In this document: in pieces, positions 47,327 through 59,161 of the stretch
How positions within the stretch are numbered: the stretch's first letter is position 1
Layout: each line of letters starts with the position of its first letter
Assembly (NCBI RefSeq): GCF_900106675.1
Contig: NZ_FNOB01000003.1
Coordinates: 124,001-188,000 of the forward strand
Reading direction: 5' to 3'
DNA from: Allgaiera indica
GTDB lineage: Bacteria > Pseudomonadota > Alphaproteobacteria > Rhodobacterales > Rhodobacteraceae
Length of the DNA stretch: 64,000 nt
Position numbers and translations under genes: made by a program
Notes under the pieces: generated by a model
The model's input: only the letters and a program-made list of their open reading frames with translations
Told to the model about the DNA's origin: nothing
Database searches by the model: none

Positions 47327-48019
47327 ATGCGCCGTACATTTGTCGAATCCCAAGATGGACTGATTCTGCTTGGCGCGGGCCCTGTCGGACGGGCGAATTT
47401 CAGCGCGGCGCGGGCACTGGCGTCAAGAGTGATCGCCGCCGATGGCGGTGCGCGCAGGGCGCTTGCGCTGGGCGTCATGCCCGAGGCCGTGATCGGTGAT
47501 CTCGACAGCCTCGATTCGGCGACGCGCGCGGCACTTCCCGAGGGTAGCGTCCACCGTATCGCCGAGCAAGACAGTACGGACTTCGACAAGACCCTGCGCC
47601 ATATCGCGGCGCCTTTCGTCATCGGGCTGGGGTTCTGGGGCGCGCGGATGGATCACGGCCTGGCGGCGCTGAACGTGCTTGCGCGCCATCCCGACCGGCG
47701 CTGCGTGCTGATGGGCGGGCGCGAGGTCTGTTTTCTTTGCCCGCCGGAACTGGATCTGGCGCTGCGCCCCGGAACCCGCGTTTCGCTGTTCCCGCTGGGC
47801 CCGGTCGAGGGCGAGAGCGAGGGGCTGGAATGGCCGATCGGGGGGCTGAAATTCGCCCCCGACGGGCGGGTGGGCACCTCGAACCGGGCGCCGACGGGCC
47901 GGGTGCGGCTGCGGTTCACGGCGCCGCGGATGCTGGTGATGCTGCCGGCGGGGGCGCTGGAAGCGGCGGTTCGGGCACTGGCGCCGGGTGCCGTGCCGCC
48001 AGCCGCTCTCGGTGGATGA
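47327..48019 (+). CDS. thiN: Thiamine diphosphokinase
   Basis: The 230-residue enzyme converts thiamine to thiamine pyrophosphate with ATP. Conserved parts are RVIAADGGARRALALGVMPEAVIGDLDSL, the catalytic QDSTDFDKTLRH and GFWGARMDHGLAALNVL, then the C-terminal barrel ending in GTSNRAPTGRVRL. No TPP riboswitch is seen upstream. Its last 104 bp overlap the end of the opposite-strand DMT gene. Confidence 0.9.
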   Translation: MRRTFVESQDGLILLGAGPVGRANFSAARALASRVIAADGGARRALALGVMPEAVIGDLDSLDSATRAALPEGSVHRIAEQDSTDFDKTLRHIAAPFVIGLGFWGARMDHGLAALNVLARHPDRRCVLMGGREVCFLCPPELDLALRPGTRVSLFPLGPVEGESEGLEWPIGGLKFAPDGRVGTSNRAPTGRVRLRFTAPRMLVMLPAGALEAAVRALAPGAVPPAALGG

Positions 48020-48878
48020 CGTAAAGGCCCGACGCCACGATCACCGCGATCCCCACCCAGGTCAGCGCATTGGGGAAGTTGCCGAAGACCAGATAGCCAA
48101 GCGTGGCGGAGCTGACGATTTCCAGATAATGCAGCGGCGCCAGCGTCGCGGCGGGGGCAAGGCGCAGCCCGAAGCTCATCAGCACATGCGAGAAGGTGGC
48201 CGCCGCCCCGACGCCGAAAAGCCAGCCCCAGGCGATGCCCTCGGGGCGCAGCAGCGTAAGATCCGGCAGCCCCAGATCCGAGGTGACCCATAGCACCGGC
48301 GCCCAAATCAGCACAGCGGCCATGGCAGTGTGGAACTGCATCTCGACCGGGTGCTGAAGCGGTGCAAGGCGGCGGGTGACGAGGATGTAAAGCGCGAAGC
48401 CCACGGCGGTGCCCAGGGGAAACAGCGCGACCGCCCCGAATTCGGCAAAGCTGGGCTGGATCACCAAGAGCGCGCCGCAAAAGCCCACCCCCGAAGCCGC
48501 GATCCGGCGCGGGCCGACCTGTTCGCCAAACAGCAGCCAGCCCAGGCCCAGGATGATGAACGGCTCGACGAAGACGATGGCCAACGCGTCGGCGATCGGC
48601 ATTTCGCGCACCGCCGCGACGAAGCAGTAGGTCGCGAAGATCGACACCGCCGCGCGTATCAGCGTCAGCTTCAGCGCCCGGCCCCGCAGGTGCAGGCTCT
48701 GCCCCATCGCCAGCACGATCGGCGCCATCAGGGCGGCCTGCACGGCAAAGCGGGCCAGGGTGATTTCGCCCACCGGCAGGGTTTGCGCGGCCAGTTTCGA
48801 GCAGACGTCGATCAGCGGCGCCGCGGCGCAAAAGCCCAGCATGAAGGCGGTACCAAGGGGGATGCGGTCCTGTTGCAT
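47916..48878 (-). CDS. EamA/DMT-superfamily transporter with Pro/Ala-rich tail
   Basis: The 320-residue ten-helix transporter has EamA features such as ADALAIVFVEPFIILGLGWLLFGEQVGPRR and the closing GIAVIVASGLYVIHRERL. Its last 30 or so residues are a Pro/Ala-rich tail encoded by DNA antisense to thiN. The neighbouring gene 48942-49838 is a diverged paralogue. Substrate unknown; many relatives export amino acids or related metabolites. Confidence 0.85.
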   Translation of the reverse strand: MQQDRIPLGTAFMLGFCAAAPLIDVCSKLAAQTLPVGEITLARFAVQAALMAPIVLAMGQSLHLRGRALKLTLIRAAVSIFATYCFVAAVREMPIADALAIVFVEPFIILGLGWLLFGEQVGPRRIAASGVGFCGALLVIQPSFAEFGAVALFPLGTAVGFALYILVTRRLAPLQHPVEMQFHTAMAAVLIWAPVLWVTSDLGLPDLTLLRPEGIAWGWLFGVGAAATFSHVLMSFGLRLAPAATLAPLHYLEIVSSATLGYLVFGNFPNALTWVGIAVIVASGLYVIHRERLAARHPAPVPEPPLPAPPPAASPASAAP

Positions 48879-48941: not shown

Positions 48942-49838
48942 TCAGGCCGGCTGGGCCAGCGCCATGCGCTCGCGCCACACGATGTAAAGGCCCGAGGCCA
49001 CGGTCAGCGCGATCCCCACCAGCGCCAGCCGGTCGGGAAAATCGGCGAAGACCAGATAGCCGGTAAGCGTGGCAAAGGGGATTTCCATGTATTGGACGGG
49101 GGCGACGGTGGCGGCGGGCGCGTGGCGCAGCGACCAGGTCATGAACAGATGGGCGAAGGTGCCGGTGACGCCCAGCGCCACCAGCAGCGCCCAGGGCTGC
49201 GGCGCCGCCAGCATCACACCCGGCGCGGGCAGTCCGAAGGGCGCCACCAGCGCCAGCGGAATCAGCACGAGCGAGGCCATCACCCCGGATGCCGCCTGCA
49301 GGCGAAGCGCATCGGCCTCGCGGCTGATCTGGCGGGTCAGCATCATGTAGAGCGCGAAGATCACCGCGACGGCCAGCGGCAGCAGAGCCGCCGGACCGGC
49401 CTCGGCGAAGCTGGGCTTGATCACCAGAAGCGTGCCGGCAAAGCCCGCGACGCAGGCCAGCAGGCGGCGGGGGCCGACCTCTTCGCGCAGGAAGAAATGG
49501 CTCAGCAGCAGCATCAGGAAGGGTTCGACATAGGCGATGGCGATGGCATTGGCGAGCGGCAGGAAGCGCAGCGCGGTGTACATCGCCCCGATCCCGCCGA
49601 CCTGCAGCACCGTGCGCAGGGCGTTCAGCACCACGACGCGCGGTCGCATCCGCAGGCTGCCACCCCCCGCCCACAGGATCGGCAGCAAGATCACGGCCTG
49701 GAAGGCAAAGCGCAGGGTGATCAGGTGAAACAGCGCAACCTGCCCGCCCAGCACCTTCGCCAGCGCGTCCGCAAGCGTCGCGGTGGCGCAGAAGGCGAGC
49801 ATCAGAGATATACCGAGAAGCGGACGATCGGGGCGCAT
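48942..49838 (-). CDS. EamA/DMT-superfamily transporter
   Basis: The 298-residue ten-helix transporter is paralogous to the gene at 47916-48878: compare ANAIAIAYVEPFLMLLLSHFFLREEVGPRR and GIALTVASGLYIVWRERMAL. The ATG at 49838 places the first helix near the N-terminus; the frame continues upstream without hydrophobic content and is trimmed. The two genes probably arose by tandem duplication. Confidence 0.86.
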   Translation of the reverse strand: MRPDRPLLGISLMLAFCATATLADALAKVLGGQVALFHLITLRFAFQAVILLPILWAGGGSLRMRPRVVVLNALRTVLQVGGIGAMYTALRFLPLANAIAIAYVEPFLMLLLSHFFLREEVGPRRLLACVAGFAGTLLVIKPSFAEAGPAALLPLAVAVIFALYMMLTRQISREADALRLQAASGVMASLVLIPLALVAPFGLPAPGVMLAAPQPWALLVALGVTGTFAHLFMTWSLRHAPAATVAPVQYMEIPFATLTGYLVFADFPDRLALVGIALTVASGLYIVWRERMALAQPA

Positions 49839-50063
49839 CGGCGCACGATAGGCAAGCCGCAAGCGGCGGGCAATGCATAGCCGCGGCCCGAAGACGACGC
49901 ACCGGCCGGCATTCCCGCGCGAACCTTTCGGGCTGCGGTCCCGGGACCCGATGTCGGGGGCGAATATCCGGGTGTTCCCTTCGGCACCGCGGTGGCCCGG
50001 GCAGCCCTTCCGCAATACGGCGTCCGGGTCGCGGCCCGGTGCCGCCGGGGCGGTTGGCGCCGC

Positions 50064-51191
50064 TCAGCTTCGCGCCTGGTCGGCCCGGTCCAGTTCTGCG
50101 CGCATCGCAGCGATGCCTTCGCCGATCCGGGTGCCCAGCCGCAGCAGAGCGCCCCCCAGCAGATAGACCGTATCGGCGCCGTACATCGCGGCCATGTCGG
50201 CGGCGCGCGCGACGCTCATGCCGCCGCCGGGGCTGGGCAGCATGGTCAGGCCCGGGCCGCGCGGATCGCGGCAGGCCGCTGCGATCTGGCCACATTCCCC
50301 GGCGCTGAAGCCGAAACGGCCGCCGACATTGGGAAACACCGAGATATCCGCCCCCGCGACGCGTTGCAGCGTGCCGAACATCACCCCATGATCGAATCCG
50401 GTATCGGGCGACAGCACATGGGGCCCCAGGAAGGCGGGATGTGTCATCACCGGCAGGTTCAGCCAGGGATCGCGCGCGATCCGGGCGACGAGGCCGAAAC
50501 CCACGAGCCCGGGCATGACCAGAAGGCCATCCACCCCCGCCTGCTTGGCGAAGCGGATATTCGCCTCGGCCTCATCCGGGGCGCCGGCGAGCGAGGCGAA
50601 ATACAGCGCCTTGCCGCCGGTCTCGGCGTTGGCGCGGGCGATGGCCATGGCGGTCTTCTCGACCCGTTCGCGGAACGGCGCCATCGGCTGATCCATGATC
50701 CCGTGATCTTCCTTGATCACGTCGGCCCCCGCCCGGGCGCAAAGATAGCCAAGTTCCGCCAGGGCGTCGGCGTCCAGCCCCTGGGGTTTGAGAACCGGCG
50801 CGATCAAACCGCCGCGCGGGCGCCCGCACAATGCCCGGATGCCCTCGATCCCGAAGCGCGGCCCGGGGTGGCGGCGGATCATCTCTTCGCCCGGGTCGAT
50901 GCCGATCACCCGCAGCCCGCGCTGGATCGAGGAATTGCCGAAGACCACGTTGAGGAATTGCGCCAGTTCCGCCCCCGCGCTGTCGGGCGAATAGCTGATC
51001 GAGGCGCGGAAACGGCCCTCGGCCTCGGGGCCGATCTCTTCGACCCGGCCCAGGATCTCTTCGGTGACATAGCCTGCGGGGACCAGATCGCGGGGGATCT
51101 CGACCGTCTGTTCCAGGGCGATCTCTTGGGCGCGGGCCTGGGCCTCGGCCTGGCTGTCGGCAAAGATCCGGTAGGTGACGGTGAAGCGCAT
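50064..51191 (-). CDS. RuBisCO-like protein (form IV)
   Basis: The 375-residue protein has RuBisCO large-chain layout: an N-terminal alpha/beta domain (1-110) and a TIM barrel. LIAPVLKPQGL keeps the lysine aligned with RuBisCO K175 (K135), and GADVIKEDHG keeps the carbamylation Lys and one Asp (K160, D162) but has His (H163) for E204. The loop-6 lysine (K334) has no equivalent in ADISVFPNVGGRFGFS. Such changes rule out CO2 fixation and resemble RuBisCO-like proteins that isomerise or decarboxylate phosphorylated sugars or acids. It shares one base with the transketolase subunit upstream. Its substrate is unknown. Confidence 0.85.
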   Translation of the reverse strand: MRFTVTYRIFADSQAEAQARAQEIALEQTVEIPRDLVPAGYVTEEILGRVEEIGPEAEGRFRASISYSPDSAGAELAQFLNVVFGNSSIQRGLRVIGIDPGEEMIRRHPGPRFGIEGIRALCGRPRGGLIAPVLKPQGLDADALAELGYLCARAGADVIKEDHGIMDQPMAPFRERVEKTAMAIARANAETGGKALYFASLAGAPDEAEANIRFAKQAGVDGLLVMPGLVGFGLVARIARDPWLNLPVMTHPAFLGPHVLSPDTGFDHGVMFGTLQRVAGADISVFPNVGGRFGFSAGECGQIAAACRDPRGPGLTMLPSPGGGMSVARAADMAAMYGADTVYLLGGALLRLGTRIGEGIAAMRAELDRADQARS

Positions 51192-52195
51192 CACAGGGCC
51201 TCGGCCTTGGCCAGGGAATGGACGGCGTCGATGCGGACCTCGTCCAGCGCGGCCTCGTCGATGCCGGTCTGCTGGCCGGTCAGCCGCTCGATCGCGTGCA
51301 CCAGCGCCTGCGCGTCCAACCCGTAATGGCGCATCAGATAGGGGCGCGAGCCGCCATGCGCATAGGTATCTTGCAGCCCCAGGCGGATCAGCCGCCGCGC
51401 CAGGCCCGCCTCGGCCATCGCCTCGGCCACCATCGAGCCGATGCCCCCCGCGACCAGGTGGTTTTCCAGCGTCACCACCCCGTGCCGGACCGAGGCCGCG
51501 TGATCGAGGATCTGCGCCGCGTCGAACGGCTTGAGGGTGTTCAGATGCAGATGCCGCACCGACACCCCCGCCGCCCCGAGCGCGCCGCGCGCCCGGATCG
51601 CCTCTTCCGTGGTGATGCCTGCGGTGACCACCAGCACGTCGCTGCCCGCCGAGAGCACGCGCATCTGCCCAACCTGCAGCGGCGTATCGAACAGCCGCGG
51701 CACCGCGCCCCGCAGCACCCGGCAATAGACCGGGCCGTCGATGCTGTCGGCGGCCGCGACGATATTCTCGACCTCGGTCGCATCGCCGGTTTCCAGCACC
51801 GTCATGTTGGGGATCGTGCGCATGACCGAGATATCCTCGATCGCCTGATGGGTCATGCCCCCAGGCGTGGTGATCCCCGGTAGGAACCCCATCAGCCGCA
51901 CCCTGCGGCGCGGATAGGCGACCGAGGCGACCAACTGGTCATAGGGACGGCGGTAGAGGAACACGCCGAACGTGTGTACGAAGGGCCGGAAGCCCGCCAG
52001 CCCCAGCCCGCCGGCGAAGGACAACATGTTCTGTTCGGCCATCCCCATCGACAGGAACTGATCGGGGTGGCGGTCACGGAAGCCGTCGATTTCGCAGCTG
52101 GAGGTCAGATCGGCGGACAGGCACAGCACCTCGGGGTGTTGCGGCGCGTAAGCCTCGAAGGCGCGGGCGTAGGGGCGGTTGACCATTTCGACCAT
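51191..52195 (-). CDS. Transketolase, C-terminal subunit
   Basis: This protein of about 334 residues holds the pyrimidine-binding domain (FLSMGMAEQNMLSFAGGLGLAGFRPFVHTF, with the Glu that activates thiamine diphosphate) and the C-terminal transketolase domain (VLVVTAGITTEEAIRA). Split transketolases have this part as a separate chain. I prefer the ATG at 52195, which follows GAGGAAG by 9 bp; a TTG at 52213 that overlaps the upstream stop is the alternative. It forms the enzyme with the 308-residue chain encoded just upstream. Confidence 0.88.
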   Translation of the reverse strand: MVEMVNRPYARAFEAYAPQHPEVLCLSADLTSSCEIDGFRDRHPDQFLSMGMAEQNMLSFAGGLGLAGFRPFVHTFGVFLYRRPYDQLVASVAYPRRRVRLMGFLPGITTPGGMTHQAIEDISVMRTIPNMTVLETGDATEVENIVAAADSIDGPVYCRVLRGAVPRLFDTPLQVGQMRVLSAGSDVLVVTAGITTEEAIRARGALGAAGVSVRHLHLNTLKPFDAAQILDHAASVRHGVVTLENHLVAGGIGSMVAEAMAEAGLARRLIRLGLQDTYAHGGSRPYLMRHYGLDAQALVHAIERLTGQQTGIDEAALDEVRIDAVHSLAKAEAL

Positions 52196-52209
52196 TGTCG
52201 TCGTCTTCC

Positions 52210-53136
52210 TCAATGGCTGCAGGCGATTGGGTCGATCCCCAGTTCGGCGGCGATCTCGCGGTTCATCTCGGCGCGCTCGTCGTCGGATTTGAAGCGGACG
52301 TAGTGAAGGCGCGGGAAGCGGCGGCGCAGGAAGCTCATGCCCTGGGTGGGCGAGGTATGGGCGAGGATGATCAGCGGCCGCCCGGGGTGCGGTTCCGCCC
52401 GGGCCTGGCGCATGGCGTCGAGGTCATGGCCGTCGATCTCGCAGACGACGGCGCCGAAATCGCGCAGCTTGGCGGCGATGTCGCCCACTTCCATCACGCT
52501 GTCCATCGCGCCGTCGCATTGCTGGGCGTTCACGTCCATGATCGCCCACAGATTGTCGATGCCGTGAAAGGCGGCGGCCTGGACGGCCTCCCATGTCTGG
52601 CCTTCCTGGACCTCGCCATCCGACATGAAGACGCAGACCTCGCCACTGTCGCCGCGGCGCTTGCGGCCCCAGGCGAGGCCCGCGGCGGTGGATAGCCCGA
52701 TGCCGAGCGTGCCGTTGTGGACCTCCATCCCCGGGCTGTGTTCGGCGCCGATCATCTCGACCGAGGAGCCGTCCTTGTTGAACATCTCCAGCCCTTCGGG
52801 GGCCATCCTGCCGGTCTCGATGAGCGTGGCATAGGCGACCAGCGCGTAATGCGCGGGGGCGATGAACAGCCGGTCGAGATGCGGCGCGGCGGGGCCGTTG
52901 TAGCCCGCGCCGGTGACATAGCCGGGATTGTCCGCCGCGGGCACGCCCTGAAACGGTTCGGGGATCATCGGCCGGGTCGGCGCGCCCAGGGTCAGCGCCT
53001 CGTTGTACAGAAAGGCCAATTGCTCGGCGGCCGAGCACGCCTGGCTGAGATAGCCGCCGTTGTTACGCATCGTGTGCTCGAAGACGCGCCGGCGAATGCC
53101 CCGTGCCACCTCTTCCGTCGTCTTGATGTTCTGCAC
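52210..53136 (-). CDS. Transketolase, N-terminal subunit
   Basis: The 308-residue thiamine-diphosphate-binding subunit has the diphosphate motif in FMSDGEVQEGQTWEAVQAAA and MDVNAQQ, plus AEHSPGMEVHNGTLGIGLS. The start is GTG at 53136 with AAGGAC just before it. It is the first gene of the minus-strand operon followed by the C-terminal subunit and the RuBisCO-like protein. Split transketolases of this kind are used in special catabolic routes (for example apulose-4-phosphate or sulfofructose cleavage) as well as in some central pathways. The substrate here is not known. Confidence 0.88.
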   Translation of the reverse strand: MQNIKTTEEVARGIRRRVFEHTMRNNGGYLSQACSAAEQLAFLYNEALTLGAPTRPMIPEPFQGVPAADNPGYVTGAGYNGPAAPHLDRLFIAPAHYALVAYATLIETGRMAPEGLEMFNKDGSSVEMIGAEHSPGMEVHNGTLGIGLSTAAGLAWGRKRRGDSGEVCVFMSDGEVQEGQTWEAVQAAAFHGIDNLWAIMDVNAQQCDGAMDSVMEVGDIAAKLRDFGAVVCEIDGHDLDAMRQARAEPHPGRPLIILAHTSPTQGMSFLRRRFPRLHYVRFKSDDERAEMNREIAAELGIDPIACSH

Positions 53137-53511
53137 GCTCGGTCCTTGGCGTCCGGGGCTGGGAATGTGATCGCCATCATGCCGCCGACACTGGGGGCTG
53201 ACAAATGATTAATCGCCCATCATCACGGGTGCGTCGGACCCGTCGCGAACCTGCGCGGACTTTGCCCGCGGCGGCGGGATCATCCGGTCCCGCCGGCCCC
53301 GTCGATTCACCCGATCGCGGAAAAACGATTGCAAATCATCGATGTTATGTTGGCATGATCCGAATGTAGGCCCGGACAAAAAGCACGTGCGACGGACGGG
53401 GGAAAGGTTGTCCAGCTCGATATGATCCTGCTATCGTTGACGAAACATCGTGGAATTCCGCAAGTTTCGTCGATGATATTGGACACACATCATTTCTTAC
53501 GGGAGGGATAC
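53137..53511. promoter_or_regulatory. Divergent control region of the transketolase and MarR/TRAP operons
   Basis: This 375-bp region has no gene. Its right half is AT-rich and contains GACGAAAC and GTTTCGTC (53439-53446 and 53464-53471) with 17 bases between them, enclosing the palindrome GGAATTCC. ATCATCGA (53335-53342) recurs inverted as TCGATGAT at 53470-53477. The symmetric elements are good candidate sites for the adjacent MarR-type regulator. Confidence 0.55.
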
Positions 53512-54042
53512 ATGGCGAACATGTCGAAACAGCCGCAGGCGACACCGATCGTCTCCTCTGCGCATCTTGCCGACGGGGACAGCGGCTGGCAGCTGAGCGA
53601 ACTCGAATACGCCATGACGATGACCTACAACGCCTTCTCGCGCTGGATGATGCATTGCATGAAGGCGGTCGGGCACAATGATTTCAACCCGCTCGACGTG
53701 CTGGTGCTGCACAACGTCAACCACCGCGGCAAGGAAAAGCGGCTGGCCGACATCGCCTTCATGCTGAATATCGAGGATACGCATACCGTCAATTATGCGC
53801 TCAAGAAGCTGATCAAGGCGGGGCTGATCGACGGGCGCAAGCTGGGCAAGGAGATGTTCTACAGCACCACCCCGCAGGGTCAGGAGGTCTGCCAGGCCTA
53901 TCGCGATGTGCGCCGGTCCTGCCTGCTTGATACCGCCGGCGCGTCCGAGCGCGACTATGACGAAATCAGCCAGGTCGCGCGGGTTCTTCGGCGCATGTCG
54001 GGACTTTACGATCAGGCCTCGCGTTCGGCCGCGTCGCTATAG
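53512..54042 (+). CDS. MarR-type winged-helix transcriptional regulator
   Basis: The 176-residue protein has a winged-helix domain: LDVLVLHNVNHRGKEKRLADIAFMLNIEDTHTVNYALKKLIKAGLI is the recognition region and GKEMFYSTTPQG the wing. It resembles the predicted MarR-like regulators of COG5631. The strong GGGAGGGA sits before the ATG at 53512. It is first in the plus-strand operon with dctPQM and divergent from the transketolase/RuBisCO-like genes, so it probably controls both in response to a pathway intermediate. Confidence 0.85.
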   Translation: MANMSKQPQATPIVSSAHLADGDSGWQLSELEYAMTMTYNAFSRWMMHCMKAVGHNDFNPLDVLVLHNVNHRGKEKRLADIAFMLNIEDTHTVNYALKKLIKAGLIDGRKLGKEMFYSTTPQGQEVCQAYRDVRRSCLLDTAGASERDYDEISQVARVLRRMSGLYDQASRSAASL

Positions 54043-54160
54043 CCCGGGCGGCCCGCGCAAACGGGCAGGGCGGGGAGACCGAGAACGCATCAAAACGTTG
54101 ACAGTTCATCAGCGTAATGCAACCGTGCCTCAATAAAGCTTCATCACAGGGAGAATGATC

Positions 54161-55132
54161 ATGGGTTTCTTGAAGAACCTCGGCGGCGCCTGCGCCGTGA
54201 CGATGGCGCTTGCCGTTCAGGCCCAGGCGCAGAGCTGGGAGATGCCGACGCCCTATCCGGACGCCAACTTCCATACGGTGAACGACCGCGCCTTTGCGGC
54301 GGATGTGGCCAAGGCGACCGGCGGCAAGCTGGAAATCAAGATCCATTCGGCGGGGTCGCTGTTCAAGCATCCCGAGATCCCGCGCGCGGTGCGTTCGGGG
54401 CAGGTGCAGGTCGGCGAATTCCTGCTGTCGATCCTGAACAACGACAACCCCGTCTTCGGCGCGGATTCGATGCCCTTCCTGGCGACCTCCTACGCCGATG
54501 CGGCGAAACTGTGGAAGGCGCAGAAGCCGGTGGTCGAGAAACTGCTGGAAAAGCAGGGGATGATGGTGCTGTATTCGGTGCCGTGGCCGCCGCAGGGGCT
54601 TTATACCAAGAAGCCGATCAAATCCGTGAAGGATCTCGCGGGGCTCAAGTTCCGCTCCTATAACGCGACGCTCGACACCTTCGCGCGGCTGGCCGGCGCG
54701 TCGCCGACCCAGGTCGAGGTGCCCGATATCCCGCAGGCCTTCACCACCGGCCGGGTCGAGGCGATGATCACCTCGCCCTCGACCGGCGTGAACACCAAGG
54801 CCTGGGATTACGTCAGCTACTACACCGACATCCGTGCCTGGCTGCCCAAGAACATCGTCGTCGCCAACAAGCGCGCCTTCGACCACCTGCCCAAGGCCGA
54901 GCAGGCCGCCGTTCTGAAGGCCGCGGCCGAAGCGCAGGCCCGTGGCTGGAAGATGAGCGAGCAAGAGACCGTGACCCAGACCAAGGCGTTGAAAGAGCAC
55001 GGCATGCATGTCGAAAAGCCCAGCCCCGAGCTGGAAGCCGGCCTGAAGAAGATCGGCGCCGAGATGCTGGCGAACTGGAAGAAGAAGGCCGGGGCCTCGG
55101 GCGCCGAGCTTCTGAAAGCCTACAATCAGTGA
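54161..55132 (+). CDS. dctP: TRAP transporter substrate-binding protein DctP
   Basis: The 323-residue periplasmic protein has a signal peptide of about 24 residues (ending in AVQAQAQS). The DctP segments include GGKLEIKIHSAGSLF, PQGLYTKKPIKSVKDLAGLKFRSYNA, where R165 is at the position that binds the substrate carboxylate in characterised TRAP proteins, and QAFTTGRVEAMITSP. It therefore likely binds an organic acid. I chose the ATG at 54161, 7 bp after AGGGAG, over one two codons upstream. Confidence 0.93.
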   Translation: MGFLKNLGGACAVTMALAVQAQAQSWEMPTPYPDANFHTVNDRAFAADVAKATGGKLEIKIHSAGSLFKHPEIPRAVRSGQVQVGEFLLSILNNDNPVFGADSMPFLATSYADAAKLWKAQKPVVEKLLEKQGMMVLYSVPWPPQGLYTKKPIKSVKDLAGLKFRSYNATLDTFARLAGASPTQVEVPDIPQAFTTGRVEAMITSPSTGVNTKAWDYVSYYTDIRAWLPKNIVVANKRAFDHLPKAEQAAVLKAAAEAQARGWKMSEQETVTQTKALKEHGMHVEKPSPELEAGLKKIGAEMLANWKKKAGASGAELLKAYNQ

Positions 55133-55193
55133 TCCGGCTTGGGCGGTCCCACAACGGGGCCGCCCCTTCGCCCTTCGTCCTGGGGAGAGAACG

Positions 55194-55742
55194 ATGCGCA
55201 AAGGCCTGGATGCGCTTTATCGGCTAAGCGGCGGTCTGGCCGCCTTTTTCATCGTTGCCATCGTCGTTGTGGTGGTTGTCCAGGTCGGGTTGAACCTGAC
55301 CGACAAGATCCTGATCGCCACTGGCACTGGCGCGCTGGGGCTGACGATCCCTTCCTATGCGGAACTGACCGGCTACTTCCTGGCGGCCTCGACCTTTCTG
55401 GCGCTTGCCTACACGCTGCGCGGGGGCGGGCATATCCGGGTGACGCTGGCGATCCAGTTCCTGCCGCCTCCGCTGCGCCGCGGCATAGAGGCGCTGGCGC
55501 TGGCCACGGCGGCCGCGATGACCGGCTTCGCGGCCTGGCACATGGTGCTGTATGTGCACGATTCCTTCAGCTATGGCGACATGTCGTCGGGGATGCTGGC
55601 GGTGCCGATCTGGATCCCGCAAACACCGCTGGCGCTGGGGCTGACGATCCTGACCGTCGCCCTTGTCGACGATCTCGTCCAGGTCCTGCTTGGCCGCGCG
55701 CCAAGTTTCGAGGGCAAGGACGAAAGCCTGCTAAGCGAATAG
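55194..55742 (+). CDS. dctQ: TRAP transporter small permease DctQ
   Basis: The 182-residue protein has four predicted transmembrane helices and the small-permease arrangement: a first helix in LSGGLAAFFIVAIVVVVVVQVGLN and the later TYTLRGGGHIRV-like segment (AYTLRGGGHIRVTLAIQFL). It sits 61 bp after dctP and 6 bp before dctM. Confidence 0.92.
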   Translation: MRKGLDALYRLSGGLAAFFIVAIVVVVVVQVGLNLTDKILIATGTGALGLTIPSYAELTGYFLAASTFLALAYTLRGGGHIRVTLAIQFLPPPLRRGIEALALATAAAMTGFAAWHMVLYVHDSFSYGDMSSGMLAVPIWIPQTPLALGLTILTVALVDDLVQVLLGRAPSFEGKDESLLSE

Positions 55743-55748
55743 GGGTGC

Positions 55749-57047
55749 ATGATGTCGATCTTCCTTCTGTCCGGCATCTTGCTGGCCCTGCTGTTCCTGA
55801 TGCTTGGCCTGGGGCTGTGGGTCGCGTTCTCGTTGATGGGCCTTGGGGTGGCGGCGATGATGCTGGGCACCTCGGCGCCGCTGGGCACGGTGCTGGCCAC
55901 CACGATCTGGGGCAATAGCAATTCCTGGGCCCTGGCGGCGCTGCCGCTGTTCATCTGGATGGGAGAGATCCTGTTCCGGTCGCGCCTGTCCGAGGACATG
56001 TTCACCGGCCTCGCCCCCTGGATGGAGCGCCTTCCCGGCCGCCTATTGCATGTCAACATCTTCGGATCGGGCATCTTCGCGGCGGTGTCGGGTTCTTCCG
56101 CCGCCACCGCCGCCACGATCGGCAAGCTGTCGATCCCGGAACTCAAGCGCCGCGGCTACCCCGAGCGGATGATGATCGGCACGCTGGCGGGATCGGCCAC
56201 GCTGGGCCTTCTGATCCCGCCCTCGATCATCCTGATCGTCTATGGAGCGGCGACCGAGCAAAGCATCGCCCGGCTGTTCATCGCCGGCGTGCTGCCCGGC
56301 ATCCTGCTGATCGCGCTGTTCGTGGGCTATGTCGCGATCTGGGGCCTGATGAACGGCGACAAGCTGCCCCAGGCCGACGAACGCCTGCCGCTGGGCGAGA
56401 AACTGCGCCGCTCGCGCCGGTTGATCCCGATCGTGGGGCTGATCGCGGGGGTGATCGGGTCGATCTATGCGGGCATCGCCTCACCGACGGATGCGGCGGC
56501 GGTCGGCGTGGCGCTGGCGCTGCTGTTGTCGTGGGGGTCGGGCTCTTTGACCCGCCAGACCTTCACCGAAGGGCTGATGAGCGCCACCATGACCTCCTGC
56601 ATGATTGCTTTCATCCTGGCGGGGGCGGCTTTTCTGACCGTGGCGATGGGCTTTACCGGGATCCCGGCGATGCTGGCGGAATGGATCGGCGGGATGAACC
56701 TGTCGCCCTATGCGCTATTGGCGGCGCTGACGGTGTTCTTCGTGATCATGGGCTGTTTCCTGGATGGGATCTCGGTGGTGGTGCTGACGACTTCGGTGAT
56801 CATGCCGATGGTGGAAAAGGCCGGGATCGACACGATGTGGTTCGGCATCTTCGTTGTGATCGTGGTCGAGATGAGCCAGATCACGCCGCCGGTCGGCTTC
56901 AACCTGTTTGTGCTGCAATCGCTGACCGGGCGCAACATCCTGACGGTGGCACGCGCGGCCTTTCCGTTCTTTCTGCTGATGCTGCTGGCGCTGGCGCTGA
57001 TCGTCATGTTCCCGGGCATCGTGACCTGGCTGCCGAGCAAGATGTAG
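55749..57047 (+). CDS. dctM: TRAP transporter large permease DctM
   Basis: The 432-residue protein has about 12 hydrophobic helices and the DctM family pieces SGSSAATAATIGKLSIPELKRRGYPERM, TLGLLIPPSIILIVYG and ISQVTPPVGFNLFVL-type segment (MSQITPPVGFNLFVLQ). It is the membrane channel of a sodium- or proton-driven TRAP importer. Its stop lies 6 bp from the convergent kinase stop. Confidence 0.95.
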   Translation: MMSIFLLSGILLALLFLMLGLGLWVAFSLMGLGVAAMMLGTSAPLGTVLATTIWGNSNSWALAALPLFIWMGEILFRSRLSEDMFTGLAPWMERLPGRLLHVNIFGSGIFAAVSGSSAATAATIGKLSIPELKRRGYPERMMIGTLAGSATLGLLIPPSIILIVYGAATEQSIARLFIAGVLPGILLIALFVGYVAIWGLMNGDKLPQADERLPLGEKLRRSRRLIPIVGLIAGVIGSIYAGIASPTDAAAVGVALALLLSWGSGSLTRQTFTEGLMSATMTSCMIAFILAGAAFLTVAMGFTGIPAMLAEWIGGMNLSPYALLAALTVFFVIMGCFLDGISVVVLTTSVIMPMVEKAGIDTMWFGIFVVIVVEMSQITPPVGFNLFVLQSLTGRNILTVARAAFPFFLLMLLALALIVMFPGIVTWLPSKM

Positions 57048-57053
57048 CGCCGA

Positions 57054-58487
57054 TCAGGCCCCCGGGCGCGCGGAACCGGGCGCGGGAAACCGGGCCCGGA
57101 CGCACAGCCCCGGGCGCCCGTTTCCGGCGCCGGGGTTGTCGGTAAGATCAAGCCGCGCGCCGTGCAGCCGCATCACTGCCGCCACCAGGCTTAGCCCCAG
57201 CCCGCTCCCCTCGCCCTCGCGCGCGCGGTCCAGCCGCACGAAGCGCTGCAAGGCGCGGGCGCGGTCGGCGGCGGCGATGCCGGGGCCGTCATCGCAGACC
57301 GACAGCAGGATCTCGCCGGTCGCGGCGTCCGCGATCCGCACCACGATGCGCGCGGGCGCCGAGCAATAGCGAAAGGCGTTCTCGATCAGGTTCGTCAGTG
57401 CCTGGGCCAGCATGTCGCGATCGCCCAGGATCGGCGCGGGACCATCGGTTTCGAGCCCCAACTGGTGGCCGGCTTCCTCGGCCACCGGTTCGAGCATCTC
57501 GAACACGTCCGCCGCCAGCGCCGCCAGGTCCAGCTTCTGTATTTCGGGCCGGGCGCTGCCGCCTTCGAGCTGGGCGATGCGCAGGACGGCGTTGAAGGCG
57601 CGCACCAGGGTTTCGGTCTCGCTGACCGCGCGGGCGATCTCTTGCGCGGCGCCCGACGGCAGATCGTCGCGGCGCAGCAGCGGCTCTAGCCGGTTGCGCA
57701 GCCGCGTCAGGGGGGTGCGCAGATCATGGGCGACATCGTTCGACACCTGGCGCAGCCCCTCGATCGACAATTCCAGCTTGTCGAGCGTGACGTTCAGCGA
57801 ACTGGCAATGCGGCCGATATCGTCGTCGCCGGCGTCCAGCGTCCGGCGGCTCAGGTCACCCTCGGCCGCGGCGTCGAGCACGGCGTTGATGCGGCCGATG
57901 CGTTCCTCGCTGCGCCGCGCCAGCAGTGCGGCCACCCCGATCGACAGCAGCAGCGCCGTGCCCAGCCCCCAGCCGATCGACTGCACCAGGACCTCGCGGC
58001 TGTCGTCGATCCAGACGGTATCGCGCCCCGCCACGATCCAGGATTTTCCGACCTTGATGCCATAGGCGGCGAAGCTGTGGTCGCGTTCGTCGGGCTCGGC
58101 GGACAGAAGCTTCATGTCGTGCCCGCCGCGCAGGATCTTCGGCCCGGTGAACGGGGTGGGGGGCGACATGTTGCCGGCGCGCTCTTGGCCATCGGGCCCG
58201 ACGAAGAGATAAAGGCTGTAGTGGTCGTCGACCGCCGCCGTATAGCCGCCGATCCGCCGGCTGAGCGCGTCTGGGCCGTCCTGGCGCAGCGATTGCGCCA
58301 GCCCTTCGGCCAGCTGCCGCGCCTGATCCGCCAGGCGGCCGCGCAACTCCTCGGTCAGCACCGCGAAGGAAACCGCCCCCGCCAGCAGGATCGCGCAAGT
58401 GAAAACCACCGTCAGCCGCATCGCAAGGCGTAGTGCCGAGGACCGGCGGATCGCCTCGAACGGCGCGGGGCGGGGTGGCAGGGTCAT
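57054..58487 (-). CDS. Sensor histidine kinase
   Basis: The 477-residue two-helix sensor has a transmembrane segment near residues 25-45, a periplasmic domain of about 125 residues (GYTAAVDDHYSLYLFVGPDGQ), a second helix, a HAMP domain and the phosphoacceptor His in VSNDVAHDLRTPLTRL (about H254). The ATPase domain follows with NLIENAFRYCSAPA, DDGPGIAAADR and GSGLGLSLVAAV. The ATG at 58487 overlaps the regulator stop by 4 bp. Confidence 0.92.
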   Translation of the reverse strand: MTLPPRPAPFEAIRRSSALRLAMRLTVVFTCAILLAGAVSFAVLTEELRGRLADQARQLAEGLAQSLRQDGPDALSRRIGGYTAAVDDHYSLYLFVGPDGQERAGNMSPPTPFTGPKILRGGHDMKLLSAEPDERDHSFAAYGIKVGKSWIVAGRDTVWIDDSREVLVQSIGWGLGTALLLSIGVAALLARRSEERIGRINAVLDAAAEGDLSRRTLDAGDDDIGRIASSLNVTLDKLELSIEGLRQVSNDVAHDLRTPLTRLRNRLEPLLRRDDLPSGAAQEIARAVSETETLVRAFNAVLRIAQLEGGSARPEIQKLDLAALAADVFEMLEPVAEEAGHQLGLETDGPAPILGDRDMLAQALTNLIENAFRYCSAPARIVVRIADAATGEILLSVCDDGPGIAAADRARALQRFVRLDRAREGEGSGLGLSLVAAVMRLHGARLDLTDNPGAGNGRPGLCVRARFPAPGSARPGA

Positions 58488-59161
58488 GACTTCAGGACAT
58501 AACCGCTGCCGCGCAGCGTATGCAGCAATGGCTTGTCGAAGGGCTTGTCGATCTTGGCGCGCAGGCGGCTGATATGGGTCTCGACCACGCTGGTCTGGGG
58601 GTCGAAGTGGAAATCCCACACCGCTTCGAGCAACATGGTGCGGGTCTGGACCCGGCCCGCGCGGCGCATCAGATGTTCGAGCAGCCGGAATTCGCGCGGC
58701 TGCAGCTCGATCTCTTGGTCGGCGCGGGTGACGCGGCGCGCCAGCAGATCCATGCGCAGATCGCCCACCGTCAGCGCCGTATCGGGGGCTTCCGAGACAT
58801 GCGGCCGCCGAGCCAGCGCCGCCACCCGGGCCGACAGCTCGGCAAAGGCGAAAGGCTTTACAAGGTAGTCGTCCGCCCCCGCCTGAAGCCCATCGACCCG
58901 GTCGCTGACGCCATCGAGCGCGGTCAGCATCAAGACCGGCGCCCGGAAGCGCGCGGCCCGAAGCGCCTTGACCAGCGACAGACCGTCGAGCCCGGGCATC
59001 ATGCGATCGGTGATCAGCAGGTCATAGGGTTGCATCGTGGCGCGCACCAGCGCGTCCTGACCATCACCGACCAGATCGACGCTGTGGCCCTCGGCGTTCA
59101 GCCCGTCGCGGATATAGGCGGCGGTCTGGGGATCGTCCTCGGCCAGCAAGATCTTCATCAT
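58484..59161 (-). CDS. OmpR/PhoB-family response regulator
   Basis: The 225-residue protein has a receiver domain (LLAEDDPQTAAYIRDGL, phospho-Asp about 52 in LLITDRMMPG, Lys in DYLVKPFAFAEL) and a winged-helix output domain (VTRADQEIELQPREFRLLEHLMRR and VVETHISRLRAKIDKPF). AGGAG precedes the start; two adjacent ATG codons are possible. It is co-transcribed with the kinase. The palindrome 120 bp upstream, repeated before the first COG4705 gene, is its likely target. Confidence 0.93.
   Translation of the reverse strand: MMKILLAEDDPQTAAYIRDGLNAEGHSVDLVGDGQDALVRATMQPYDLLITDRMMPGLDGLSLVKALRAARFRAPVLMLTALDGVSDRVDGLQAGADDYLVKPFAFAELSARVAALARRPHVSEAPDTALTVGDLRMDLLARRVTRADQEIELQPREFRLLEHLMRRAGRVQTRTMLLEAVWDFHFDPQTSVVETHISRLRAKIDKPFDKPLLHTLRGSGYVLKS

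What the first reader, a model, noticed from the sequence alone, without database searches (positions are those of the whole stretch)
50064..57047. RuBisCO-like protein, split transketolase, MarR and TRAP transporter form a divergent catabolic cluster
The minus-strand operon (transketolase N- and C-subunits, then a form IV RuBisCO homologue) and the plus-strand operon (MarR-type regulator, DctP-DctQ-DctM) share one palindrome-bearing control region. From established work, apiose and apionate catabolism uses RuBisCO-like decarboxylases and split apulose-phosphate transketolases. Here the two are in one short operon without the kinase, dehydrogenase or isomerase genes expected. The inferred route is uptake of a carboxylate, conversion by the RuBisCO-like protein of a phosphorylated acid to a ketose phosphate, and C2 transfer by transketolase. 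The missing kinase must be elsewhere, or the pathway is different.
Basis: partly seen in the sequence, partly recalled or inferred. Interest (0 to 1): 0.78.

Follow-up and report, generated by a model that had tools for sequence, protein, structure and literature searches.

The report
RuBisCO-like protein paired with odd transketolase
Beside a predicted pyroglutamate importer lies a conserved operon in which a RuBisCO-like protein and an unusual two-part transketolase likely work in sequence to break down the modified sugar left over when cells use S-adenosylmethionine.

Summary
The genes are real, but the finding joins two unrelated units. The minus-strand trio (transketolase N, transketolase C, RuBisCO-like protein, RLP) is a conserved operon: 32 of 34 related loci keep it, and 28 of 34 carry mtnA together with mtnK (25) or a phosphorylase-type gene (3). 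The RLP lies outside the OiaX and MtnW groups, in one clade (100/98) with cupin-linked RLPs, and shares their active-site signature. Transketolase and cupin never occur in the same locus. I infer that the RLP converts a 5-substituted ribulose 1-phosphate to a 1-substituted xylulose 5-phosphate, and that the transketolase cleaves it. All 32 pairs lack the His that recognises the donor's C1 hydroxyl, plus three other pocket residues. The 'missing kinase' would be MtnP plus MtnA, encoded elsewhere in this genome. MarR-DctPQM is a predicted pyroglutamate importer: 13 of 14 examined relatives adjoin oxoprolinase genes. Seven searches of an open-access library (capped lists) showed no paper linking such an RLP to a transketolase. 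Nothing was tested at the bench.

The parts
50064..51191 (-). RuBisCO-like protein, 375 aa, DeepYkr-type; predicted 5-substituted-ribulose-1-phosphate 1,3-isomerase
51191..52195 (-). split transketolase, C-terminal subunit (pyrimidine-binding and C-terminal domains); stop overlaps RLP start
52210..53136 (-). split transketolase, N-terminal (thiamine-diphosphate-binding) subunit with the family motifs GGYLSQ and VEMIGAEHSPG
53137..53511 (.). intergenic region between the two units; only weak inverted repeats; not shared in L030, where a DinB-family gene intervenes
53512..54042 (+). MarR-type winged-helix regulator that travels with the TRAP operon (homologue in 11 of 14 relatives examined)
54161..55132 (+). 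DctP solute-binding protein, predicted pyroglutamate-binding
55194..55742 (+). DctQ small permease subunit
55749..57047 (+). DctM large permease subunit

Best explanation
The minus-strand trio is a conserved operon encoding a DeepYkr-type RuBisCO-like protein and a divergent two-subunit transketolase that likely act one after the other on 5-deoxy- or 5-methylthio-ribulose 1-phosphate, while the MarR-TRAP genes beside it are a separate, predicted pyroglutamate uptake unit. Inferred route in this genome: 5'-methylthioadenosine or 5'-deoxyadenosine (by-products of S-adenosylmethionine use) is cleaved by MtnP with phosphate, so no kinase is needed; MtnA isomerises the product to the 5-X-ribulose 1-phosphate (X = SCH3 or H); the RLP moves the carbonyl to give 1-X-xylulose 5-phosphate; the transketolase cuts the C2-C3 bond, releasing glyceraldehyde 3-phosphate and a two-carbon X-CH2-CO unit that is passed on or released. 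In most other loci the input would be a sugar taken up by an ABC transporter and phosphorylated by MtnK. Shown by sequence: operon conservation, clade, active-site signatures, gene content. Inferred: every catalytic step, the substrate, and the pyroglutamate ligand.
For: Clade: the 34 TK-group RLPs (window included), 15 cupin-linked RLPs and the 3QFW fragment form one clade (100/98); MtnW is its sister and OiaX-type RLPs lie outside. Signature: K201-x-D-H (H in 33 of 34 TK-group and 16 of 16 cupin-plus-3QFW rows) and K334 to R (34 of 34; 16 of 16), unlike the OiaX, MtnW and RuBisCO rows. Context: TK-N, TK-C and RLP adjacent in 32 of 34 loci; mtnA in 28, mtnK in 25 of these, a PNP-type gene in the other 3, cupin in 0; cupin in 14 of 15 loci of the sister group and TK in 0 of 15. 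Two loci found later obey the rule (L168: TK, mtnA, mtnK; L169: cupin). Transketolase pocket: in 32 of 32 sequences human H37 is Y, H110 is hydrophobic, H416 is L and D424 is G, while H77, E366 and R474 stay; the two full-length transketolases of this genome that I examined keep GHP. PMC7661550 (section 14 read): H100 (human H110) is Phe in DXP synthase, and H100F or H100L gives a transketolase activity on pyruvate. Own genome: MtnP 494 over a cut-off of 437 bits, MtnA 420 over 279, no MtnK; the three class II aldolases score over the cut-offs of other families, so no MtnB or Ald2 was seen. Characterised precedent, passages read: R. palustris RLP1 and R. rubrum Rru_A1998 isomerise 5-methylthioribulose-1-P.
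Against: No enzyme of this TK-linked subclade is known to me to have been assayed; the R. rubrum and R. palustris RLP sequences were not in hand, so the link to them rests on the RLP-cupin gene pair and on 3QFW (its organism is recalled). The TK group is not shown to be one clade: L007 and L134/L135 branch deeper. Two of 34 TK-group loci (L037, L056) show no TK. Eighteen of 34 loci also carry a bifunctional aldolase/dehydrogenase that could consume the same ribulose 1-phosphate, making RLP-TK look redundant there. Vibrio L007 has sugar kinases and no mtnA in view, so the substrate may vary. The window and L030 lack the whole uptake module. An invariant His four residues past the lost one (GAEHS) might replace it; the roles of H37, H416 and D424 are recalled; and in my own alignment the genome's DXP synthase has a gap at the H110 column, so it neither shows nor denies the Phe.
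Confidence: 0.62

Rival explanations
1. One reading: the TRAP transporter imports a sugar acid, an OiaX-like RLP decarboxylates its phosphate, and an apulose-phosphate-type transketolase takes the ketose.
For: TRAP and RLP-TK are neighbours in the window and L030; RLPs with TRAP and four-carbon acid sugar kinases do exist in other bacteria.
Against: RLP is not in the OiaX group by score (72 of 700 bits), tree or active-site residues; TRAP relatives sit with oxoprolinase genes in 13 of 14 loci examined; this DctP is in 2 of 34 RLP loci.
Confidence: 0.05
2. The RLP acts as proposed, but the transketolase runs in the building direction: it adds a two-carbon unit to the modified sugar or to the aldehyde from the aldolase route, making a longer deoxy-sugar for disposal.
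For: In Synechococcus a promiscuous transketolase turns 5-deoxyribose into 7-deoxysedoheptulose (PMC8102628, passages read); aldolase/dehydrogenase genes in 18 of 34 loci would supply aldehydes.
Against: That route needs no RLP, yet TK and RLP genes are adjacent in 32 of 34 loci; loss of the C1-OH-binding His argues against ordinary ketose donors.
Confidence: 0.12
3. The pair works on a different ketose 1-phosphate (for example ribulose 1-phosphate or another 5-modified sugar), turning it into a 5-phosphate that the transketolase then uses.
For: Vibrio nigripulchritudo L007 has FGGY sugar kinases and an ABC transporter with TK-RLP and no mtnA in view; the chemistry is the same whatever the substituent.
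Against: mtnA is in 28 of 34 loci, mtnK in 25, scoring above the curated cut-offs in the one example tested, L006; pocket changes argue against a C1-hydroxyl donor.
Confidence: 0.15
4. The TRAP unit and the RLP-TK operon are functionally linked here: a new carboxylate ligand imported by DctP feeds the RLP-TK pathway.
For: The oxoprolinase gene that relatives carry beside DctP is absent and TK-RLP lies there instead in the window and L030; DctP is only 56-65% identical to the 14 relatives.
Against: 116 of 126 columns invariant in the 14 relatives are kept, the ten changes mostly mild; L030 has a gene between the units; the nearest relative outside the genus with the RLP operon (L031, genome G010) has no such MarR, DctP or DctM in view and no such DctP in its genome at E up to 1e-40.
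Confidence: 0.06

Closest known systems
MTA-isoprenoid shunt of Rhodospirillum rubrum and Rhodopseudomonas palustris (DeepYkr RLP plus cupin MTXu-5P methylsulfurylase)
   Same: RLP of the same clade as cupin-linked RLPs, same active-site signature, inferred same isomerisation of 5-methylthioribulose 1-phosphate (PMC5893883 and PMC4958253, passages read)
   Different: No cupin in 34 loci; a two-subunit transketolase takes its place, so the product would be split into glyceraldehyde 3-phosphate and a C2 unit instead of kept as DXP
DHAP shunt for 5-deoxyribose and methylthioribose (mtnK/mtnP, mtnA, ald2)
   Same: mtnK and mtnA beside a sugar transporter in most RLP-TK loci; a regulator annotated as sugar-binding (that MtnR of E. 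coli is of this kind is recalled); same inferred inputs (PMC12632272, PMC10986504, PMC6079011, passages read)
   Different: Adds RLP and transketolase; this genome has no Ald2-type aldolase among its three class II aldolases
OiaX/OiaT and split apulose-phosphate transketolase (apiose and apionate catabolism)
   Same: Also uses RLPs and two-subunit transketolases in sugar catabolism (Carter 2018, recalled; paper not held)
   Different: Different RLP clade and active site from annotated OiaX; AptAB sequences were not compared
Split-gene transketolase of Carboxydothermus hydrogenoformans (6YAK)
   Same: Best solved-structure match of both subunits, thiamine diphosphate motifs kept
   Different: Keeps the donor-pocket residues that all 32 RLP-linked enzymes have lost
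DXP synthase
   Same: Hydrophobic residue in place of the C1-OH-binding His (PMC7661550); TK-C scores 161 bits on the DXS model, second to one transketolase model at 196
   Different: Two subunits; found with mtnK/mtnA-type genes; the genome has a true DXS elsewhere (801 bits)

Membership tests
DeepYkr RLP (5-methylthioribulose-1-P 1,3-isomerase) | falls in the clade of cupin-linked RLPs, apart from MtnW, OiaX and RuBisCO | tested here: met
   clade of 50 rows, 100/98; but outside the cupin subclade itself (100/100 with 3QFW)
DeepYkr RLP (5-methylthioribulose-1-P 1,3-isomerase) | active-site signature K201-x-D-H and R334 | tested here: met
   H in 33 of 34 and R in 34 of 34 TK-group rows; both in 16 of 16 cupin-plus-3QFW rows
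DeepYkr RLP (5-methylthioribulose-1-P 1,3-isomerase) | cupin methylsulfurylase gene beside it | tested here: not met
   cupin in 0 of 34 TK-group loci; none found in the own genome (no positive control)
DeepYkr RLP (5-methylthioribulose-1-P 1,3-isomerase) | isomerase activity | not testable with these tools
   needs an assay
OiaX decarboxylase | NCBIfam equivalog score of at least 700 bits | tested here: not met
   72 bits; annotated OiaX control 759
MtnW enolase | TIGR03332 score of at least 513.6 bits | tested here: not met
   116 bits; MtnW control 751
Transketolase | thiamine diphosphate motif and catalytic Glu | tested here: met
   SDGE...DVN kept in the family alignment; E366 equivalent in 32 of 32
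Transketolase | donor-pocket residues H37, H110, H416, D424 (human numbering; H110 called invariant in PMC3485151 passages; the other three recalled) | tested here: not met
   all four replaced in 32 of 32
Apulose-4-phosphate transketolase AptAB | close sequence kinship to AptA/AptB | not tested
   no reference sequence in hand; no AptA/AptB model was listed for P0002 or P0003 in NCBIfam
Pyroglutamate TRAP transporter | binding protein close to 2PFY/2PFZ/6WGM (ligand recalled) | tested here: met
   335, 299 and 249 bits against 86 for the next chain
Pyroglutamate TRAP transporter | 5-oxoprolinase gene alongside | tested here: not met
   met in 13 of 14 relatives examined, absent from the window
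DHAP shunt | MtnP or MtnK, MtnA and Ald2 | tested here: not met
   MtnP and MtnA present, no MtnK, no Ald2-type aldolase in this genome

The most novel reading that the evidence does not exclude
A third branch of S-adenosylmethionine by-product salvage: an RLP makes 1-methylthio- or 1-deoxy-xylulose 5-phosphate and a dedicated transketolase runs DXP-synthase chemistry backwards, with methanethiol expelled from the thiamine-bound intermediate (as water is in phosphoketolase), giving glyceraldehyde 3-phosphate plus an acetyl unit.
Probability: 0.3. Interest if true: 0.85.

Novelty: new variant of a known kind. Interest (0 to 1): 0.66.

Why it matters
If right, a RuBisCO-family isomerase and a transketolase retuned towards DXP-synthase chemistry form a new way to recycle carbon and sulfur from S-adenosylmethionine by-products, seen here in Rhodobacterales, Rhizobiales and on a Vibrio plasmid. 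It would assign a function to proteins that some databases now call 'ribulose-bisphosphate carboxylase large chain' or 'transketolase', explain what consumes methylthioribulose phosphate in genomes like this one, where no MtnB or Ald2 was seen, and offer a natural transketolase for 1-deoxy-ketoses; PMC7661550 describes H100 mutants made to accept pyruvate.

Tried and rejected
Apiose/apionate pathway: rejected on HMM score, tree and active site. MtnW enolase: rejected. RLP as DXP supplier for isoprenoids: not needed, the genome has a DXS scoring 801 bits. TRAP as part of the RLP pathway: rejected from relatives' context; other TRAP permease genes do lie some genes away in L041, L051 and L053, but not this DctP or MarR. 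A MarR palindrome in the shared region: only weak inverted repeats. The search for the cupin in the own genome was empty but without a positive control. The oxoprolinase-like proteins of the genome are only 26-35% identical to the one beside a relative's DctP, so the pyroglutamate-opening enzyme here is not identified; 'oxoprolinase' in relatives rests on Pfam for one example of each protein and tblastn for the rest. The crude gene caller picked some antisense frames and missed some genes; contexts were therefore recounted by tblastn. Counting rules: L040 and L042 (same genomes as L031 and L035) were dropped before the counts; L167 is the same contig as L030; L168 and L169 came later and are not in the 34 or 15. 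'TK group' holds all loci that are neither cupin-linked nor OiaX-like, including L037 and L056 in which no TK was seen; L055, L056 and L134 lie on short or cut contigs; L138 was put in the cupin group by its place although no cupin was seen (its contig ends nearby). The RuBisCO row and L007 are long branches in the tree. In one alignment the lost His aligns with Met instead of Ile, by a one-column gap shift; both are hydrophobic. Other transketolase-like hits of the genome (C35, C75, C48) were not examined. Paper lists were capped (20 of 168; 20 of 43; 15 of 40; 15 of 25). The apiose paper and the R. rubrum RLP paper were not held.
Full report
What is there. The window lies at C34:124001-188000 of a 4.28-Mb genome, G000, whose nearest named relatives here are Defluviimonas (Rhodobacterales). 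The seven genes are intact and in the stated places; families are RuBisCO_large, split transketolase, winged-helix MarR, DctP, DctQ, DctM. The RLP is one of two RuBisCO_large matches in the genome; the other, on C33, looks like a true RuBisCO (445 bits). Against L030 and L031, dN/dS is 0.09-0.22 for RLP, TK-C and TK-N.

Two units, not one. Close relatives of DctP were examined at 14 loci (14 of the 83 genomes with a hit among 149 searched, 56-65% identical). Thirteen of 14 have oxoprolinase genes beside DctP (fused hydantoinase A/B type in 8, pxpB/pxpC with or without pxpA in 5), and 11 of 14 have the same MarR homologue beside DctM. The best solved structures are 2PFY, 2PFZ and 6WGM, pyroglutamate binders as I recall. 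In window and L030, 116 of 126 columns invariant among the 14 are kept. So MarR-DctPQM is a predicted pyroglutamate uptake unit. Among 34 RLP loci it occurs only in the window and L030, which are of one genus, and in L030 a DinB-family gene lies between the units. G002 and G010, which have the RLP, are listed without such a DctP at E up to 1e-40.

The conserved unit. RLP homologues were found in 20 of 295 genomes of the family, own included, in 20 of 385 of the class (E up to 1e-15, own included, three of them OiaX-like) and in 5 of 398 of the phylum at E up to 1e-30, own included. With named loci from plasmids and genomes, 34 distinct TK-group loci and 15 cupin-group loci were compared by tblastn. 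TK-N, TK-C and RLP are adjacent and co-directional in 32 of 34. mtnA is in 28 of 34, mtnK in 25, a purine-nucleoside-phosphorylase-type gene in the 3 others with mtnA, a sugar ABC binding protein in 25, a bifunctional aldolase/dehydrogenase in 18, a sugar-binding-type regulator in 27. The small gene between the RLP and the transporter in L031 is a RbsD/FucU-type mutarotase; its cluster has 12 members. The mtnK and mtnA of Agrobacterium L006 pass the curated cut-offs (491 over 275; 441 over 279 bits). Cupin: 0 of 34. In the sister group cupin is in 14 of 15 and TK in 0 of 15. Two loci found afterwards follow the same rule (L168 TK, L169 cupin).

Placement of the RLP. In a 62-row tree (IQ-TREE, LG+C20) the window RLP sits with L030 and L031, inside a 31-row TK clade (97/87). 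That clade, the deeper TK rows L134/L135 and L007, the cupin rows and 3QFW form one clade (100/98), sister to MtnW (100/97 together); OiaX and four-carbon-kinase RLPs are outside. The TK label needs two changes, so TK linkage may be older than the cupin linkage; this is not settled. Active-site columns: TK and cupin RLPs share K175, K201, D203, His in place of E204 (one TK row has Asp), and Arg in place of K334; OiaX-type rows keep DDE and K334. R. palustris RLP1 and R. rubrum Rru_A1998, characterised 5-methylthioribulose-1-P 1,3-isomerases, are DeepYkr RLPs with a cupin gene next or near by locus number (PMC5893883 and PMC4958253, passages read).

The transketolase. Both subunits best match the split transketolase of Carboxydothermus (6YAJ/6YAK; 199 and 118 bits). 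In all 32 pairs, His37, His110, His416 and Asp424 of the human enzyme are replaced by Tyr, Ile (Met by another gap placement), Leu and Gly, while His77, Glu366 and Arg474 equivalents and the thiamine diphosphate motif remain. Two full-length transketolases of the same genome keep GHP; its DXS shows a gap at that column. PMC7661550 (sections 12 and 14 read) states that H66, H100, G114 and H473 bind the donor, that H100 is replaced by Phe in DXP synthase, and that H100F and H100L raise activity on pyruvate. PMC3485151 (passages) calls His110 invariant among transketolases. I infer a donor without a C1 hydroxyl, which is what the RLP's predicted product would be.

The 'missing kinase'. G000 has MtnP (494 bits over 437), followed by an adenine-phosphoribosyltransferase-like frame (read by eye), and one MtnA whose scanned neighbours are a helicase, an aspartic protease, a NAAT transporter and an ABC-F protein. 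It has no MtnK (control rings in E. coli and B. subtilis) and no cupin by a single-sequence search (no positive control). Its three class II aldolases are two 3-oxo-tetronate-4-P decarboxylases and one PRK07490 protein by curated cut-offs, so no MtnB or Ald2 was seen. Phosphorolysis by MtnP would supply the phosphate, and the RLP is the only candidate I found for using the resulting ribulose 1-phosphate. A normal DXS is present.

Known or new. Searches of the open-access library (listings, four of them capped; passages of the papers named) showed the RLP-cupin shunt, the DHAP shunt (PMC12632272, PMC10986504, PMC6079011) and a promiscuous transketolase on 5-deoxyribose (PMC8102628), but no RLP-transketolase module. 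Most subscription papers were not searchable, among them the main apiose paper. I rate it a new variant of a known kind. The catalytic steps remain inference.

Noticed in passing
window 47327-48019 (+): Thiamin pyrophosphokinase gene, 2 kb from the end of the RLP-transketolase operon, whose transketolase needs thiamine diphosphate; the stretch aligns with L030. Possibly coincidence.
   Followed up: no
window 47916-48878 (-) and 48942-50015 (-): Two EamA-type transporters directly downstream of the RLP on the same strand, with homologues in the same place in L030.
   Followed up: no
window 57054-59161 (-): Histidine kinase and response regulator with a Trans_reg_C domain next to DctM, on the opposite strand.
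   Followed up: no
L158 2229-5234 and L162 2227-5273: TRAP, VOC-family protein, RLP, four-carbon acid sugar kinase cluster in Paracoccus marcusii and Paroceanicella; RLP related to OiaX but only 377-382 of 700 bits: perhaps another unassigned RLP pathway.
   Followed up: partly
L003 3425-14167 and L058: Ponticoccus variant: BMP-family ABC transporter, PNP, amidohydrolase, mtnA, molybdopterin oxidoreductase, TK-N, TK-C, RLP, perhaps a whole-nucleoside version of the pathway.
   Followed up: partly
L007 7871-14548: TK-N, TK-C, RLP with an FGGY sugar kinase on a conjugative Vibrio nigripulchritudo plasmid, no mtnA in view: a different substrate is possible.
   Followed up: partly
L059, L060 (G000 C62 and C72): Two copies of a 3-oxo-tetronate-4-phosphate decarboxylase gene beside what looks by eye like a four-carbon acid sugar kinase.
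   Followed up: no
L037: Oceaniradius locus keeps RLP, mtnK, mtnA, ABC transporter and aldolase but shows no transketolase genes.
   Followed up: no
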